From: an uncultured Desulfovibrio sp.
Lineage (GTDB): Bacteria > Desulfobacterota > Desulfovibrionia > Desulfovibrionales > Desulfovibrionaceae
Direction of reading: 5' to 3'
Length of the DNA stretch: 59,427 nt
Assembly (NCBI RefSeq): GCF_944324935.1
Contig: NZ_CALUYG010000013.1
Span: 1-59,427 of the forward strand
The notes beneath the pieces are model-generated. The model worked only from the letters and a program-made list of their open reading frames with translations. It did not search any database and was not told where the DNA came from. Positions 24,089 to 56,076 of this stretch are shown in pieces. The translations under genes and the position numbers were made by a program. Each line of letters starts with the position of its first letter. Position 1 is the first letter of the stretch.

Positions 24089-24466
24089 ATGAAAAAGAAA
24101 GTGGGCCTTATCCGTTGTCAGCAGACGGAAGATCTCTGCCCCGGCACCAAGGATTTTTGCTATGCGGCGGAGGGAAAGGGGGCGTTTGAACCCTTTGGCG
24201 AGTGTGAGGTGGTGGGTTTCGTTTCCTGCGGCGGCTGTCCCGGCAAACGGGCGGTGGCGCGGGCGCAGATGCTCAAGGACCGGGGCGCGGAAGTGGTGGC
24301 GCTCACCTCCTGCATCACCAAGGGAACGCCCATCGGCTTCCCCTGCCCCAACAAGGGGATGATGCTGCACGCCATACGCGCCAGACTGGGTGAGGATTTC
24401 CCGGTGCTGGACTATACGCATCCGTCCGCCGCGGAGCTCAAGGCGGCGGAACAGGCAAAAGCCTGA
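24089..24466 (+). CDS. CGGC-domain protein
   Basis: 125 residues of the CGGC family, small Cys-rich proteins of anaerobes thought to bind metal. Present are an N-terminal VGLIRCQQTEDLCPG, the eponymous SCGGCPGKRA near residue 47, and TSCITKGTPIGFPCPNKG near 72, giving conserved cysteines in each. AAGGAG lies upstream. It faces the flavodoxin-ferredoxin gene convergently. A role in metal or Fe-S handling is an inference from the cysteines; no enzyme activity is known. Confidence 0.82.
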   Translation: MKKKVGLIRCQQTEDLCPGTKDFCYAAEGKGAFEPFGECEVVGFVSCGGCPGKRAVARAQMLKDRGAEVVALTSCITKGTPIGFPCPNKGMMLHAIRARLGEDFPVLDYTHPSAAELKAAEQAKA

Positions 24467-48873: not shown

Positions 48874-48978
48874 GCCGGCCGGCCGCCTTTCTCGCGCCGC
48901 GCCTGCGCCGGGTCACGGCGTGCGCCCTGCCGGCATGGCATGCTGATGTATACACCTGCAACCCCACGGAGGTTTTCC

Positions 48979-49389
48979 ATGAAGTGGTTCGTCCATGTTT
49001 GTCTGGCGCTGGCCCTGCTGGCCGCGGGAGCGAGCGCCGCCCGTGCCGACGCCTACCAGCTCTCCACCCACATCCTCGACATCACCCGCGGCAAGCCTGT
49101 GCCGGGGGTGCAGATCCTCCTTTTCAAGATCGACACCACCAAGGACATCTGGGTCAAGGTGGCCGAAGGCCGGACGGACGAGAACGGCCGGGTGGGCAAC
49201 TTCCTCCCCGGCGTGGGCAATGACGGGACCTACAAGCTGCGTTTCGAGGTGGCCCCCTATTTCAAGGCCCATAACGAGCCCTCGCTCTACCCCTTTGTGG
49301 AGATCATCTTCGCCATCGAAGGGGCCGGACATTACCATATCCCCATCACCATGTCGGCCAACGGCTATTCCACCTATCGCGGCAACTAG
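48979..49389 (+). CDS. exported transthyretin-like protein (HIUase family)
   Basis: 136 residues: a signal peptide (about 1-24, AAGASAARAD) and a 5-hydroxyisourate hydrolase/transthyretin fold. The N-terminal LSTHILDITRGKPVPGVQI has the catalytic His. The C-terminus reads FAIEGAGHYHIPITMSANGYSTYRGN; the family end is YRGS, here YRGN. In urate breakdown HIUase opens 5-hydroxyisourate. Here there is no uricase or OHCU decarboxylase nearby and the protein is exported, so another periplasmic role is possible. GGAGG precedes the ATG at 48979. Confidence 0.85.
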   Translation: MKWFVHVCLALALLAAGASAARADAYQLSTHILDITRGKPVPGVQILLFKIDTTKDIWVKVAEGRTDENGRVGNFLPGVGNDGTYKLRFEVAPYFKAHNEPSLYPFVEIIFAIEGAGHYHIPITMSANGYSTYRGN

Positions 49390-51298: not shown

Positions 51299-51643
51299 TT
51301 AATCCCCGCCGCCGCCTCCGTCGCAGCCTCCACAATCCCCCCCACCGTCGCCGTCGCCTCCATCGCCGTCCCCGCCAAAGAATCCCCCGCAATGAGGGCA
51401 GCGACCGCTTGTCGGGGCATGGGAATCGGGGGTGTCATCGAAAAAAGCGTCGTCCTTGCTCAGAGTGCCACCAGTACCGTCCACAGGGGCCCTCGAACCG
51501 AGGGCACGCTGTCTGGGGCGTCAGCCGCAGCGTTTTTTTATCATGTCGTCAAAGACAAGATATCGGAAGATGAAGTAAATCAGGAAGAGCAGAAAAACCA
51601 CGAGTAAAAATTTACCAAGCAAGCTGAGCAGTTCCCATATCAT
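51299..51643 (-). CDS. putative small membrane selenoprotein 1 (C-G-U motif)
   Basis: Read with the in-frame TGA at 51523-51521 as selenocysteine, the gene gives 114 residues. One membrane span (about 7-30) leads to DDMIKKRCG, then Sec41, RPRQRALGSRAP and a hydrophilic stretch with KDDAFFDDTP. A CPHCGG pair and a Gly/Asp-rich tail with CGGC end the protein at a TAA. The ATG at 51643 has GGAGG 5 bases upstream. Without recoding the product would be a 40-residue peptide ending Cys-Gly. Supporting recoding: a paralogue at 52245 conserves the same frame on both sides of its TGA, and a SECIS-like hairpin follows. Cys39-Gly40-Sec41 would be a redox motif. No known family recognised. Confidence 0.72.
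51483..51512 (-). promoter_or_regulatory. SECIS-like hairpin of selenoprotein 1
   Basis: Beginning 16 bases after the TGA: GCCCTCG, loop GTT, CGAGGGC (7 pairs), flanked by an outer ACAG/CTGT stem. The apical loop starts 23 bases after the TGA and begins with GU, as bacterial SECIS elements require for SelB binding. Confidence 0.7.
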
Positions 51644-51672
51644 GCAGGTCCTCCAGGTACAGGATTCCTTGT

Positions 51673-51845
51673 GTGTTTTTTGGGGGGGAGAAGTCTCCTC
51701 CTGCTGTGCTGGCGATGCCTGCCGGCGCGGCCCTGCGGGGCCCTCCCCGGAGCGTTGCCCTGCAGAAAGGCATTTTTTCCTCCGCACGCTCCTCCGCCTT
51801 TCCCCCACCCTCCGCCGGGGTGAGGAGGATGGGGCGCGAAGCATC
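51673..51845. repeat. GTGGGGGGAAGG-related intergenic repeat, copy 3
   Basis: A diverged unit between the two small selenoprotein genes: TTGGGGGGGAGAAG at the start, GGCCCTGCGGGGCCC stems inside, and CTTTCCCCCACCCTCCGCC at the end. Sequence order parallels copy 2 at 49417. AAAGGAA/TTCCTTT (51851-51872) just beyond is a small hairpin that may end the transcript of selenoprotein 2 in part. Confidence 0.5.
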
Positions 51846-51912
51846 CGTTCAAAGGAAAGAATATCTTCCTTTCCAGAGGGTCAGACTTCCCTCCTCGAGA
51901 TGGGGTGTCTGA

Positions 51913-52245
51913 TCATGCGTCCCGGCCCTGATGCCGTTCAATTCCCGCCGCCTCCGTCGCACGACGAACCGGCTGAGGATCCGCCCCGGCATGATCGCCG
52001 CCACGGTCACTGCCGGCGGGACGGGATGACGCGGCGGACGGCGTCCTTGCTCCGGGCGTGCCGTCGAAAAAGAAGCCGTCCTTGCGCGGGGGGTGTTCAT
52101 TGTCGTTCAGCGGATCCCTCAGACCGAGGGCGCGCAGGTTGGGGCGTCAGCCGCAGCCGTTGCCCGCCGCGCCGTTGCCGATGAGGCGGGACAGGCCAAA
52201 GCCCAGCAGGCCGCAAAGGAGCAGGGCGAGCACAAGTTCCAGCAT
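51913..52245 (-). CDS. putative small membrane selenoprotein 2 (C-G-U motif), tail probably frameshifted
   Basis: With TGA at 52149-52147 read as selenocysteine the product is 110 residues: a membrane span (3-21), a Gly/Asn-rich hinge GNGAAGNGCG, Sec33, RPNLRALGLRDP, then KDGFFFDGTP. The ATG at 52245 has GGAGG 5 bases upstream and lies 42 bases after hydF, so it is co-transcribed. From about residue 75 the frame departs from paralogue 1. The homologous Gly-rich end (SSCDGGGGN, then TGA at 51940-51938) lies in another frame, so an indel has occurred or the assembly has an error. Function unknown. Confidence 0.68.
52110..52135 (-). promoter_or_regulatory. SECIS-like hairpin of selenoprotein 2
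   Basis: CCCTCG, loop GTC, TGAGGG (six pairs including one G-T), with outer GCG/CGC pairs. The loop is again exactly 23 bases after the TGA. The outer pairs differ from copy 1 while pairing is kept. Confidence 0.68.
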
Positions 52246-52287: not shown

Positions 52288-53568
52288 TCAAGCATGCCGT
52301 TGTCGGGCGCTCTGGTCAAGGCAGGCTTCCCTGTAGGCGGCAAGGGCTTCGGGGAAAGGCGACAGCACCCGTTCCAGCACGCCCTGCGCCAGCGATATGG
52401 CCATACCGTAATTGGTCATGGGCAGATCGGCGCGCTGTGCCGTGATGAGACGGCGGGTCATCTGACGCCGGCTGAGGGTGCAGCCGCCGCAGTGCACCAC
52501 AACGCGGGCCTGCTGGATCGCGTCATAGTCCTGCCAGTGCCGGCCGGCCAGCAGGCGGCAGTCCAGCTCGCCGCCCGCCAGACGGGCCAGCAGACGCGGG
52601 ATCTTGACCCGGCCGATGTCGTCCTCCTGCGGATGGTGCGAGCAGGCCTCCTGGATGAGGACCGTGTCGCCGGGGCGCAAACTGTGGAGTGCCGCCGCGC
52701 CGCGCGCCAGCAAGGGCAGATCGCCCTTGAGGCGGGCCATGAGCACGGAAAAGGTGGTGAGCGGGATCTCCGGCGGCGCTGCGGCGGCCACGGGGGCAAT
52801 GACCTGGGAATCGCAGACGATGAGCTGCGGCGCTTCGCGCAGACTCTCCAGCGCCGCGCCGCATTCCTCGTCCGTGACCACGAGGCAGAGGGCGTGTCCG
52901 TCCAGCGCATCGCGGATGGCCTGTACCTGCGGCATGATCAGGCGGCCCTTGGGTGCGCTGCCGTCCTGCGGGCAGACGAGGAGCAGCCGCCCCCGCGGGG
53001 GGAGAAGATCGCGCAGCAGGGGAGGTTCCTCCTCCTGCGGACGCAGGCGCACCAGCAGCTCCCGCACCTCGTCCAGCGCGCCGGCGGGCGTGGACGTCCC
53101 GTCCAGCCGGCAGACGGCCAGCGGGATGGACGCGGGCAGGGCGAAGGTCTCCGGCCCCAGACGGCGGGCGGCCTGCTCCGCCGCCGCATCCCGGCAGTTG
53201 CAGACGACGCCGAACGGCACGTCCGCCGCCTGCAGGGCCGCGGCAAGCCGGGCCTCCGGCGGGCCCCAGAGGCTGTCCTCCAGTACGACCAGAGCCACAT
53301 CCACTTCCTCAAGCGTCCGCAGGCTGCGGGCCACGCGCTGCGCGCCCAGCTCGCCGGCATCATCGAGGCCGGGGGTATCCAGCAGCACCACAGGGCCCAG
53401 CGGGGCGAGCTCCATCACTTTTTCCACCGGGTCCGTGGTCGTGCCGGGCACGGGAGAGACCAGGGCCGCATCCTGGCCGCAAAGCGCGTTGCACAGACTG
53501 GATTTTCCGGCATTGCGGCGGCCGAAGAGGCCGATATGCAGCCGCTGGGGACGACGAGCATCAGACAT
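52288..53568 (-). CDS. hydF: [FeFe]-hydrogenase maturation GTPase HydF
   Basis: 426 residues. The N-terminal TrmE/Era-like GTPase domain has the P-loop GRRNAGKSSLCNALCGQ (about 15-31) and DTPGLDD as G3. The C-terminal part has the Fe-S ligand set of HydF: ACSHHPQEDD near 302 and HCGGCTLSRRQM near 360. HydF is the scaffold on which the di-iron subcluster is assembled before transfer to the hydrogenase. Its ATG overlaps hydE by 8 bases. hydG is not in the window. Confidence 0.96.
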   Translation of the reverse strand: MSDARRPQRLHIGLFGRRNAGKSSLCNALCGQDAALVSPVPGTTTDPVEKVMELAPLGPVVLLDTPGLDDAGELGAQRVARSLRTLEEVDVALVVLEDSLWGPPEARLAAALQAADVPFGVVCNCRDAAAEQAARRLGPETFALPASIPLAVCRLDGTSTPAGALDEVRELLVRLRPQEEEPPLLRDLLPPRGRLLLVCPQDGSAPKGRLIMPQVQAIRDALDGHALCLVVTDEECGAALESLREAPQLIVCDSQVIAPVAAAAPPEIPLTTFSVLMARLKGDLPLLARGAAALHSLRPGDTVLIQEACSHHPQEDDIGRVKIPRLLARLAGGELDCRLLAGRHWQDYDAIQQARVVVHCGGCTLSRRQMTRRLITAQRADLPMTNYGMAISLAQGVLERVLSPFPEALAAYREACLDQSARQRHA

Positions 53569-54541
53569 GGGCGGGATCTCCTGCCGGAGGGGCGGCGGGC
53601 AGACTGTGCCGCAGCCCCGCGGCGGTTATGGCGCGGCGGGCGGCCTCGAGGCTCACCTGTGCCTTGTTGTCGTAAATACGGTAGGCCGAACGGCAGGCGG
53701 GCGGCGTGAAGGACGGCATGAGCACATTGGCTCCGGCCAGCAGGCCCTGTCGTTGTCCGTCGGCGGGCGAGAGGCTGGCCAGTGCCGTGGTGGCGGGCAG
53801 ATGCGCCGTGGGCAGGACCAGCCGCAGGACGGCCAGCACCCGCAGCGTCAACGGCACGTCGCCACGGGGCGCATGGGCCAGCGGCGTGGCCGCCTGCGGG
53901 ATGAAGGGGCCCACGCCGCACATGGCCACGCCCAGTCGCTGCACCAGCAGGATGTCGTCCACGAGCGAGGTGGGACGCTGGCCCGGCACGCCTACCAGAA
54001 ACCCCGAGCCGACCTCGTAGCCCAGTTCGGCCAGCCATTCCAGCGCCCGTATGCGTTCCGCGAGCTGGTGACCGGGATGCAGACGGGCATACAGGGCCGC
54101 ATCCGCCGTCTCATGCCGCAGCAGGAAGCGGTCCGCGCCGGCCTCCCGCCAGCGGGCATAGTGTTCGCGCGGCACTTCGCCCACGCTGAGGGTGACGGCC
54201 AGGCTCAGCTCGGCCTTGACCTGCCGGATGATGCCGGCCAGCCAGTGCGGCGGGCGTTCCCATTCGCCGGATTGCAGGACAAGGGTGTCCACGCCGGCGG
54301 CGGCCGCCTGCCGGGCCGCGGCCAGTATCTGCCCCTCGGTCAGGCAGTAGCGGCCAAGTTCGCGGTTGGCGCGCTGCAAGCCGCAGTAGCGGCAGTTGCG
54401 GCGGCAGAGATTGGCAAATTCCAGCAGGCCGCGCACGAAGACGTGCCGTCCCACGGCGGCACGGCGCTGTCGTTGCGCCGCGGCCCGCAGTTCGGGCCAG
54501 GGCATGCGGAAAAGCAGCTCGAGGATCTGGCGACGGTCCAT
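53561..54541 (-). CDS. hydE: [FeFe]-hydrogenase maturation radical SAM enzyme HydE
   Basis: 326 residues from the ATG at 54541; a TTG 18 bases upstream is an alternative, and neither has a strong ribosome site. The radical-SAM motif is CRRNCRYCG (about residues 46-54). FANLCRRN before it, LVLQSGEW near 90, SVGEVPREHYARWREAGAD near 119 and HPGHQLAERIRALE near 150 match HydE/PylB-like enzymes. HydE helps build the dithiomethylamine-bridged di-iron unit from the HydG product. Located 80 bases after the hydrogenase gene. Confidence 0.95.
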   Translation of the reverse strand: MDRRQILELLFRMPWPELRAAAQRQRRAAVGRHVFVRGLLEFANLCRRNCRYCGLQRANRELGRYCLTEGQILAAARQAAAAGVDTLVLQSGEWERPPHWLAGIIRQVKAELSLAVTLSVGEVPREHYARWREAGADRFLLRHETADAALYARLHPGHQLAERIRALEWLAELGYEVGSGFLVGVPGQRPTSLVDDILLVQRLGVAMCGVGPFIPQAATPLAHAPRGDVPLTLRVLAVLRLVLPTAHLPATTALASLSPADGQRQGLLAGANVLMPSFTPPACRSAYRIYDNKAQVSLEAARRAITAAGLRHSLPAAPPAGDPAHV

Positions 54542-54621
54542 GACTGGGCGGAGAGGCAATGGCGGGGCGAAAGCGGCGGGGCCGGAGGTCGTCCGTACCG
54601 GGACGGCCCCCGGCCCGCGGC

Positions 54622-56076
54622 CTAGTCGTGCGGAGCGCTGTCCGGCGAGGACTGGGCAAAGCGGTCCACCAGGCGGGCCGCCTTGTCCGCTTCGGCCAGC
54701 ACGCCCGCGCCGCCCACGCAGCCGCCCACGCAGGTCATAACCTCGACGAGGTTGCCGGGGCAGCTGCCGTCGATATAGGATTGCATTTTACGCAGGGCCT
54801 GCAGGGAAAGGCCGTTGATAAAGATGGGCCGCACCTCTTCCCGGTCGCCCACGACCTTCTTGACCGCGGCCGCCACGCCGCCGGAAATGGCGTAGCCGCG
54901 TCCTGCGCCGGAGGCATTGCCGAGCTCGGCTTCGGCGCATTCCTCCACCACGATGCCCCTGGCGTCCAGCAGGGCCCCGACCTCTTCGAAGGTCAGCACG
55001 AAATCCACCAGCGGGTCGTTGAGCCCTTCCGTGCGCTTGGCCACGCAGGGGCCGAGAAAGACATTGATGGTGTCGGGCCGGGCCTGACGCGAGAGCTCGG
55101 CCGCGTAGTGCATGGGCGTACGCGTTTCCGAGACGAAGGGGAGCAGGTTGGGGGCGTGGCGGCGAACGGCCTCCACATAGGCCGGGCAGCAGGAGGTCGT
55201 CATAAACTTGTCGCCGCGCGCCATGCGCTCCACGAATTCCTCGGCTTCACGCCGGCTGGTGACGTCGGCGCCGGCGGCCACCTCCGCCACCTCGTCGAAG
55301 CCCAGCGCCTTGAGCGCGGTGATGATGCGCGGCAGCCCGCCCTTGAACTGGCCGACCATGGCCGGAGCCACCAGGGCCGTCACATGGGCGTCGCTGCGCA
55401 GGGCCAGCAGCACCTCCAGTACTTCGCTGCGCTCCATGACCGCGCCGAAGGGACAGGCGCGCATGCAGCGGCCGCAGCTCGTGCATTTGTCGAAGTCGAT
55501 CTCCGCCCGTCCCTCGGGGCCCTTGTGGATGGCCTGCACCGGGCAGGCCGCCTCGCAGGGGACATTCAGGCGCACGATGGCCTGGTAGGGGCAGTGGTCG
55601 TGGCATTGCCCGCAGTTGCGGCATTTGTTGGCGTCGATATAGGAACGCCCCTGCGCGAAGGAGATGGCCCCGAAGCGGCAGCTGCCGGCGCAGGAGCGGG
55701 CCACGCAGCCCTGACAGGCGTCGCTGACGAAGTAGCGGGCCTTCATGCAGCCGTGGCAGGCAATGTCGCAGACGGTCAGGATGGGCCAGTTGGGCGTCTG
55801 ATCGGCCAGCGCCTGTTCGGCAAAGTGACGCAGGGGCACGCTGTCGTCCGGCTGATCTTCCAGCCGGAAACCCAAGGCCGCGATGATGCGTTCGCGCAGG
55901 ATGGCCCGGTCCTTGTAGATGCAGCAGCGGGTCTGCTCGTTGCCGTTGCGCGGCCGCATGACGTAAGGGATGCTGTCGATGTGCTCGGCCAGGCGATCTT
56001 CCCAGAAAGCCCGGGCAATATGCCCGATGACGCCGAGCCGCAGGGCACAGACCATGTTCTTGTTTTGCAGGGTCAT
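54622..56076 (-). CDS. [FeFe] hydrogenase, group B-like, soluble
   Basis: 484 residues. A Cys-rich N-terminal domain (C103 to C133 region, CDIACHGC and CQGCVARSCAGSC) is followed by two [4Fe-4S] ferredoxin motifs (CRNCGQCHDHCP near 152 and CTSCGRCMRACP near 198), and then the H-cluster domain. Its ligands are present: TSCCP (Cys 296/297), GPCVAKR (Cys 344; Gly replaces the common Met) and EVMTCVGGC (Cys 449 and 453). There is no signal peptide, so it is cytoplasmic, probably ferredoxin-linked. GGAG precedes the ATG at 56076. hydE and hydF follow, supporting an active enzyme. Confidence 0.93.
   Translation of the reverse strand: MTLQNKNMVCALRLGVIGHIARAFWEDRLAEHIDSIPYVMRPRNGNEQTRCCIYKDRAILRERIIAALGFRLEDQPDDSVPLRHFAEQALADQTPNWPILTVCDIACHGCMKARYFVSDACQGCVARSCAGSCRFGAISFAQGRSYIDANKCRNCGQCHDHCPYQAIVRLNVPCEAACPVQAIHKGPEGRAEIDFDKCTSCGRCMRACPFGAVMERSEVLEVLLALRSDAHVTALVAPAMVGQFKGGLPRIITALKALGFDEVAEVAAGADVTSRREAEEFVERMARGDKFMTTSCCPAYVEAVRRHAPNLLPFVSETRTPMHYAAELSRQARPDTINVFLGPCVAKRTEGLNDPLVDFVLTFEEVGALLDARGIVVEECAEAELGNASGAGRGYAISGGVAAAVKKVVGDREEVRPIFINGLSLQALRKMQSYIDGSCPGNLVEVMTCVGGCVGGAGVLAEADKAARLVDRFAQSSPDSAPHD

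What the first reader, a model, noticed from the sequence alone, without database searches (positions are those of the whole stretch)
51299..52245. Two tandem, unannotated small membrane selenoproteins with a Cys-Gly-Sec motif
Each of two adjacent small genes has a membrane span, then Cys-Gly, then an in-frame TGA, then Arg-Pro. Past the TGA the two frames align without a gap for 36 codons with 16 identities (RP..RALG.R.P, KD..FFD.TP). Several identical residues use different third bases (CGT/CGC, CCT/CCG, GAT/GAC, ACC/ACG), the mark of protein-level selection beyond the TGA. Ordinary gene callers would report only 40- and 32-residue peptides or miss them. C-x-U is a classic redox arrangement. 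I know of no named family with this layout.
Basis: partly seen in the sequence, partly recalled or inferred. Interest (0 to 1): 0.95.

Follow-up and report, generated by a model that had tools for sequence, protein, structure and literature searches.

The report
New membrane selenoproteins beside hydrogenase genes
Gut Desulfovibrio bacteria carry an undescribed family of tiny membrane-anchored proteins that appear to contain the rare amino acid selenocysteine and whose genes sit beside the genes for a hydrogen enzyme, so that ordinary gene finders cut them short.

Summary
In detail: two small minus-strand genes (A, 52245-51913; B, 51643-51299), each with a membrane helix, Cys-Gly, an in-frame TGA and a continuing frame. 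Seven genomes of one genus, the window's included, keep the A/B layout; four more carry a second form (C) at the same place after hydF. All 13 copies have a 15-nt hairpin with a G-G-U apex exactly 16 nt after the UGA; three of its six pairs show compensatory changes. All 11 carriers have selB and tRNA-Sec; the window's genome also has a Sec-formate dehydrogenase. I conclude that A and B are genuine selenoproteins of an undescribed family; for C the frame evidence is thinner. No NCBIfam or Pfam model reached its cut-off, a 2026 catalogue of 119 families has no such entry, and no Cys homologue was recognised. New here: the genes end a group B1 [FeFe]-hydrogenase/maturase cluster, and the 11 carriers are all among the 18 of 79 congeneric genomes with that hydrogenase. 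Most likely a cytosol-facing, membrane-tethered Cys/Sec centre serving that hydrogenase; the function is inferred.

The parts
51913..52245 (-). Gene A: small membrane selenoprotein, read from ATG 52245 through the Sec TGA to the next TGA (51915-51913)
   Evidence: GGAGG before the ATG; homologues in six other genomes
52147..52149 (-). Sec UGA codon of gene A
   Evidence: TGA at the same place in all seven A-form copies
52116..52130 (-). SECIS-like hairpin of gene A, CCCTC-GGTCT-GAGGG, starting 16 nt after the UGA
51984..51987 (-). G run, one base shorter than in G186; the frame of the last part of A differs from that relative from here on
51299..51643 (-). Gene B: paralogue of A with a Gly/Asp/Cys-rich tail (includes CPHC and CGGC)
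   Evidence: (E 7.6e-9 to A)
51521..51523 (-). Sec UGA codon of gene B
51490..51504 (-). SECIS-like hairpin of gene B, CCCTCG-GTT-CGAGGG, starting 16 nt after the UGA
52288..53568 (-). hydF, H-cluster maturation GTPase, directly upstream of A
   Evidence: TIGR03918, 467.8 bits, cut-off 325.55
53561..54559 (-). hydE, radical SAM maturase
   Evidence: TIGR03956, 307.1 bits, cut-off 254.6
54622..56076 (-). monomeric group B1 [FeFe]-hydrogenase, first gene of the presumed cluster
   Evidence: TIGR04105, 543.4 bits, cut-off 450

Best explanation
Genes A and B are bSECIS-directed selenoprotein genes of an undescribed family. Shown by sequence: an N-terminal membrane helix, a Cys-Gly-Sec (in G126 Cys-Gly-Gly-Gly-Sec) site just after it, a conserved hairpin 16 nt past the UGA, and a place at the end of a group B1 [FeFe]-hydrogenase/maturase gene cluster. 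Inferred: that SelB uses the hairpin; that the Cys/Sec site lies on the cytosolic side, because Lys and Arg occur only after the helix; and that the selenol/thiol pair acts there as a membrane-tethered redox or iron-handling centre for the hydrogenase HydA-B1 (electron relay, membrane docking, or protection and repair) rather than as an H-cluster assembly factor. The confidence given is for the selenoprotein claim together with the hydrogenase link; the exact role I hold at about 0.3.
For: A/B form: UGA at one place in 7 genomes found with a profile that did not ask for it. Hairpin with G-G-U at exactly +16 in 13 of 13 copies of A, B and C, against 3 of 1382 TGAs in the window, 2 of them A and B. 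In 7 distinct hairpins 42 of 42 cells pair and three of six pairs change on both sides; partners slid by 1-3 columns give at most 66.7% paired and at most one such pair. In G126 one compensatory pair change is silent on both sides: GCC and AGG against GCT and AGA. Synonymous recodings of five copies kept the hairpin in 0, 1, 0, 15 and 18 of 2000. tRNA-Sec and selB over their cut-offs in 11 of 11 carriers; a formate dehydrogenase frame with V-U-HGPT in the same genome. UGA-to-FF distance is 24, 25 or 26 codons across A, G185, G126 and B, so the length changes are whole codons. Pooled pN/pS for codons 13-36 is 0.52 in the Sec frame, 0.83 and 2.28 in the others. Hydrogenase link: same order hydA, hydE, hydF, A in 6 of 7 A/B genomes; in G200 hydA, hydG, hydE, hydF, C, with C 39 nt after hydF; all 11 carriers among the 18 of 79 genomes with HydA-B1.
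Against: No Cys homologue was recognised, the usual support for a new selenoprotein. Selection on codons 13-36 of A is borderline (p 0.05), and the tail past about codon 36 is hardly constrained. By Nei-Gojobori the A pairs give 0.35-0.69 after the UGA, but 1.83 for window against G186, and the part before the UGA gives 0.45-0.96, so constraint is loose throughout. For C: G153 differs from the other three by 4 non-silent and 0 silent changes after the UGA; its Sec frame ends after 26 codons while frames 1 and 2 run 48 and 39; it was found by looking for a TGA; and it shares no clear protein sequence with A after the UGA. Hairpin energy alone is not striking: 1 to 16% of synonymous recodings fold at least as well. 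By my contiguous-stem version of the published bSECIS model all seven A-form hairpins fail the energy limit, while 225 of 1382 window TGAs pass. The 11 carriers are related; collapsed to three lineages the hydrogenase link has p 0.01. No such gene was found near hydF or hydA in seven HydA-B1 genomes. No expression or selenium data exist here.
Confidence: 0.75

Rival explanations
1. The UGA is an ordinary stop: the genes make 28-40-residue single-helix membrane peptides that end in Cys-Gly (Gly-Gly in G126), and the downstream hairpin is a regulatory or mRNA-stability element.
For: Identity among A genes peaks at the UGA and hairpin and falls to background after about +100 nt; A against B is nearly as similar in the other frames; the C form shows no sign of selection after the UGA.
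Against: The hairpin has a fixed distance and G-G-U apex as expected of a bSECIS, and it covaries; length changes between UGA and the FF motif are whole codons; in the A and B copies listed frame 0 stays open for 60 codons (34 in G126) while frame 1 stops at 8 or 19 and frame 2 at 13-42; all 11 carriers have selB and tRNA-Sec.
Confidence: 0.12
2. They are Sec versions of FeoB-associated Cys-rich membrane proteins (PF12669) with a role in ferrous iron handling, and the hydrogenase neighbourhood is incidental.
For: Same layout: helix, basic residues, then G-C-G-C; profile comparison gives 96.2% probability over 34 columns; G126 scores 17.2 bits, E 0.0065, against PF12669. An iron role would suit an iron-rich hydrogenase.
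Against: None of the seven copies given to Pfam reaches the cut-off of 27 bits; the match is a helix plus Gly/Cys, which chance can give; no feoB among the neighbours scanned.
Confidence: 0.3
3. The protein is an accessory factor of H-cluster assembly, docking HydF at the membrane or delivering reduced sulfur or iron to it.
For: It follows hydF in 10 of 11 carriers.
Against: G126 has no hydF match and no HydG of the 883-921-bit kind (its 319-bit match, over the cut-off of 312.15, is of a kind that other carriers have as a second copy), and its HydA differs at two H-cluster-region residues, yet it keeps the gene directly after hydA; 43 of the 53 genomes with hydF are not known to carry it.
Confidence: 0.2

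Closest known systems
Bacterial selenoproteins with a bSECIS (for example the FdhA frame of the same genome)
   Same: In-frame UGA; downstream hairpin with G in the apical loop 16-37 nt away (model in PMC13188914, section 5); selB and tRNA-Sec present
   Different: PMC13188914 (section 7) says that most characterised selenoproteins have a Trx-like fold; this is a 55-118-residue single-helix protein with no confident fold and no Cys homologue recognised
[quoted passage not shown]
   Same: Short protein, N-terminal helix, then a Gly/Cys cluster; weak profile similarity
   Different: Below the Pfam cut-off; Sec in place of a Cys; RALG and an FF motif with a following D after it in the A/B form; hydrogenase neighbours instead of feoB
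PP0621 family protein (NF041023)
   Same: Gene B only: helix plus a later C-x-x-C (12.5 bits)
   Different: Far below the cut-off of 45 bits; none of the nine other copies given matches

Membership tests
bSECIS-dependent selenoprotein gene | UGA at one conserved place with the frame continuing | tested here: met
   All seven A-form copies and both B copies. The four C copies have it too but were found by it
bSECIS-dependent selenoprotein gene | Hairpin with G in the first two apical positions, 16-37 nt from the UGA | tested here: met
   15-nt hairpin at +16 with GGU in 13 of 13 copies; loop from +21 or +22 in 12 of 13 lowest-energy hairpins, G185 folding otherwise; covarying pairs
bSECIS-dependent selenoprotein gene | Hairpin energy at most -7.5 kcal/mol | tested here: inconclusive
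   B and C pass; all seven A-form copies fail when only the contiguous stem is counted, but fold at -10.2 or lower with outer pairs (for G185 this is a different fold)
bSECIS-dependent selenoprotein gene | Sec machinery in the genome | tested here: met
   tRNA-Sec and selB in 11 of 11 carriers; selA and selD not searched
bSECIS-dependent selenoprotein gene | Cys homologues aligned at the Sec position (supporting evidence in the field rather than a definition) | tested here: not met
   None recognised with A2 in 348 genomes or A3 in 287. 42 and 31 genomes had matches at the E limits; those under E 1e-5 are known copies or, in G213, a C fragment. Weaker ones were looked at only where a locus was held, (A2); those were not inspected apart from L144
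bSECIS-dependent selenoprotein gene | Selenium in the protein | not testable with these tools
   needs 75Se or mass spectrometry
PF12669 FeoB_associated | Score over the curated cut-off of 27 bits | tested here: not met
   best 17.2 bits (G126), 12.2 bits (G186 A); 7 of 13 copies were given whole or nearly whole
PF12669 FeoB_associated | Gene beside feoB | tested here: not met
   neighbours are hydF and crcB in the window and in five A-form relatives
Thioredoxin-fold selenoproteins | Trx-like fold | tested here: inconclusive
   AlphaFold2 on G186 A gives one helix 2-23 and no other element, mean pLDDT 54.3, 7 sequences only
Catalogued selenoprotein families (119, Table 1 of PMC13188914) | Match to one of the listed descriptions or to a family model | tested here: not met
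   table read; NCBIfam scan of 10 of the 13 copies gives no match up to E 10 except 0.13 for gene B

The most novel reading that the evidence does not exclude
A dedicated membrane-anchored selenoprotein partner of group B1 [FeFe]-hydrogenase: a Sec/Cys centre that ties a soluble gut hydrogenase to the cytoplasmic membrane and passes electrons to it, shields it or supplies its metal. As far as I recall it would be the first selenoprotein tied to an [FeFe]-hydrogenase; the literature searches listed nothing of the kind. It stayed unseen because it has no recognisable Cys homologue.
Probability: 0.33. Interest if true: 0.85.

Novelty: new variant of a known kind. Interest (0 to 1): 0.66.

Why it matters
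Selenoprotein finders often lean on Cys homologues; the authors of deep-Sep say that their method may miss selenoproteins without them (passage of PMC12013277). This family looks like such a case, found by its frame and hairpin. It also gives selenium a possible role at group B [FeFe]-hydrogenases, which a 2025 paper names as the main driver of gut hydrogen production (start of the abstract of PMC12578642; its main text does not mention Desulfovibrio or selenium). If the reading is right, selenium-poor conditions would leave only truncated membrane peptides, a testable link between selenium supply and hydrogen turnover in the gut.

Tried and rejected
Rejected: ordinary stop plus unrelated downstream DNA (hairpin, frame and covariation data). 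Not taken as homologues: the 14 weak matches outside the window's genome (E 0.009 to 0.1; one search read most of them, the minus-strand ones in the wrong orientation, so the judgement rests, where none of these loci scored below iE 2 against profile A2); the 14 other genomes at E 3e-5 to 0.04; the G245 frame (E 8e-5; frame with another TGA and no helix by eye); the Mesorhizobium match (three codons before the TGA, no helix). FeoB_associated-like proteins of other genera (iE 1e-4 to 0.1) were treated as an analogy.

Led nowhere: viral-contig scan with B; genome-contig scan with A2 (its pattern put a Cys codon at the TGA, so it could not match); Rfam on the region (four matches far below their gathering scores); Pfam scans, all below cut-off; structure prediction (helix only). 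Fold searches were not run because the model is of low confidence. Names of the C-form genomes and of G126 were not obtained.

Not done: selA and selD search, genome-wide hydE search, metagenome contigs, a phylogeny, the hydF loci beyond the 30 returned for 53 genomes, inspection of most weak matches.

Full report
What is there. The window is contig C13 (59427 bases) of a 2.7-Mb genome. On the minus strand lie a monomeric group B1 [FeFe]-hydrogenase, hydE, hydF, gene A and gene B, then crcB on the other strand. A and B each encode a membrane helix, Cys-Gly, TGA, Arg-Pro and a continuing frame.

A weak point of the finding. Comparing A with B in the other two frames gives 14 and 15 identities, and base identity by codon position is 26, 22 and 22 of 36. 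The four silent third-base differences therefore do not prove selection on the protein. Half of the 16 identities lie in the first 12 codons, which contain the conserved RNA hairpin.

Relatives. A profile of A and B with Cys at the Sec place matched 21 of 288 genomes of the family at E up to 0.05. Seven of them (G000, G186, G185, G204, G213, G215, G126), all in the window's genus, have the layout with TGA at the same place, E from 4e-48 to 4e-8; the other 14 (E 3e-5 to 0.04) were not taken as homologues. The search of 348 genomes of the order gave 42 genomes with matches; the same seven, then nothing better than E 8e-5. Of the 30 hydF loci read, only the window's and that of G186 show the tandem pair. 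G126 is divergent: GCGGG-U-GVNLRALGLRDP...FFHD and then a stop soon after; the match there also ran over that TAG. Reading the DNA behind 30 hydF loci (53 of 79 congeneric genomes have hydF) for a TGA shortly after a Cys brought a second form, C, in G200, G212, G153 and G193; in G200 it reads MPGPLFAVIGIIVMFFAMRWVFKNGGCG-U-MPRRPAPGPGEKRLEEFSARRKEEDR. Its profile matched 31 of 287 genomes at E up to 0.02: these four (E below 1e-38), a 26-residue fragment at a contig edge in G213 (2e-13), and weaker matches from E 8e-4 that I did not inspect. No form with Cys at the Sec place was recognised.

The hairpin. In all 13 copies a 15-nt hairpin begins exactly 16 nt after the UGA, with G-G-U at its apex. 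Only 3 of 1382 TGAs in the window show it, among them A and B; the third, at 24187 on the plus strand, is followed by a short frame of five codons. In the 7 distinct sequences all 42 cells pair; pairs 2, 4 and 5 change on both sides; sliding the partner by 1-3 columns never exceeds 66.7% paired. In the shuffle control 0 of 500 reach the cells paired, the cells with double changes or the covariation score, but 30 of 500 reach the number of pairs with double changes and 378 of 500 the number of further pair types. In G126 the changed pair is silent on both sides (GCC and AGG against GCT and AGA), so RNA and peptide are kept together. Recoding five copies with synonymous codons kept the hairpin in 0, 1, 0, 15 and 18 of 2000; by energy alone 1 to 16% of the recodings fold as well. 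The published bSECIS model is not specific here: 225 of 1382 TGAs pass my version of it, and all seven A-form copies fail its energy limit when only the contiguous stem is counted. With outer pairs the A-form hairpins at this place reach -10.2 to -17.4 kcal/mol; the best fold of G185 is a different one. From memory, the loop GGUCU equals that of E. coli fdhF.

The frame after the hairpin. In G186, G204, G213 and G215 the variable columns by codon position are 0, 0, 2 (codons 1-12), 10, 6, 12 (13-36) and 12, 12, 14 (37-56). For codons 13-36 pN/pS is 0.52 in the Sec frame and 0.83 and 2.28 in the others; the excess of variable third over second positions has a permutation p of 0.05, and 0.03 for codons 1-56. 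By Nei-Gojobori 14 of 15 A pairs give 0.35-0.69 after the UGA, window against G186 gives 1.83 (six changes), and the part before the UGA gives 0.45-0.96 where defined. Distances from UGA to the FF motif are 24 (four relatives and the window), 26 (G185), 25 (G126) and 25 (B) codons. Identity along five A genes is 1.00 around the UGA, 0.93 over the hairpin, 0.70-0.76 to +99 and near background after that. So the core to the FF motif is kept, the tail hardly. For C there is no such support: G153 differs from the other three by 4 non-silent and no silent changes after the UGA, and the Sec frame (26 codons) is shorter than the open stretches of the other frames (48 and 39). C rests on its hairpin, its helix with Gly-Cys-Gly-UGA and its place after hydF.

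Sec machinery. tRNA-Sec is in 56 of 79 genomes of the genus and in all 11 carriers (p 0.016 for 11 of 11, ignoring relatedness); selB is over its cut-off in 11 of 11 carriers. The window's genome also encodes a formate dehydrogenase frame with V-U-HGPT.

The hydrogenase link. Six A/B genomes, the window's included, keep the order hydA-B1, hydE, hydF, A. In G200 the order is hydA, hydG, hydE, hydF, C. All 11 carriers are among the 18 of 79 genomes with HydA-B1 at E up to 1e-60; the hypergeometric p of 3.5e-9 ignores relatedness, and with three lineages it is 0.01. In the seven other HydA-B1 genomes no small helix gene was found in the 0.6-1.6 kb read behind hydF or hydA. G126 has no hydF match; its HydG match of 319 bits is over the cut-off of 312.15 but of a kind that other carriers have as a second copy. 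Its HydA has Phe for the first Cys of TSCCP and Gln for Lys of GPCxAK (their roles at the H-cluster are recalled), yet the selenoprotein gene follows it directly. This single case points to a partnership with HydA rather than with the maturases; decay of the whole locus is the alternative.

What it may do. Lys and Arg are absent before the helix and number 2-7 in the 20 residues after it in 13 of 13 copies, so by the positive-inside rule (recalled) the Sec site faces the cytosol. AlphaFold2 gives a helix at 2-23 and nothing else, mean pLDDT 54.3. A short flexible Cys/Sec site beside the membrane suits a thiol/selenol relay or a metal-binding tether. The profile similarity to FeoB-associated Cys-rich proteins (96.2%) is a lead toward iron; membership fails at the Pfam cut-off. 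[quoted passage not shown]

Known or new. Of PMC13188914 I read the outline, section 5, parts 1-2 of 3 of section 7 (the whole table) and passages: its 119 families include no entry described as a small single-helix protein of this kind. NCBIfam gave no match for nine of the 10 copies scanned, of 13, and an insignificant one for gene B. PMC12013277 (passages) names three hypothetical families, found in Desulfosediminicola and Desulfosarcina. The literature searches listed no paper on such a protein; several listings were capped (for example 20 of 1511), and most subscription papers and all preprints are outside that library.

Noticed in passing
L176 / L103 (G126): HydA-B1 with two H-cluster-region residues replaced (TSCC to TSFC, GPCVAK to GPCVAQ) in a genome without a hydF match, yet open and 77% identical: perhaps a former hydrogenase with a new use, or a decaying locus.
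   Followed up: partly
18 HydA-B1 genomes: Two classes of best HydG match: 883-921 bits in the ten carriers with hydF, 485-509 bits in the seven HydA-B1 genomes without the selenoprotein; G126 has 319.
   Followed up: no
L106:3103-3105 (G204): Gene A of G204 meets a second TGA about where G213 has Cys (SC-DGGGGD against S-TGA-DGSGRD): a stop or a second Sec.
   Followed up: no
window 51984-51987: G run one base shorter than in G186; real frameshift or assembly error in the window's gene A.
   Followed up: partly
L144 (G213:C163): Contig edge that begins exactly at the first codon after the UGA of a C-form gene, in a genome that also has the A form; contamination or a second locus.
   Followed up: partly
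L196 2763-4757 (G186:C6): selB lies about 9 kb upstream of the selenoprotein genes on the same contig in G186.
   Followed up: partly
window 48940-49389: Hydroxyisourate hydrolase (TIGR02962) with what looks by eye like a signal peptide, between a deacetylase-like gene and proC.
   Followed up: no
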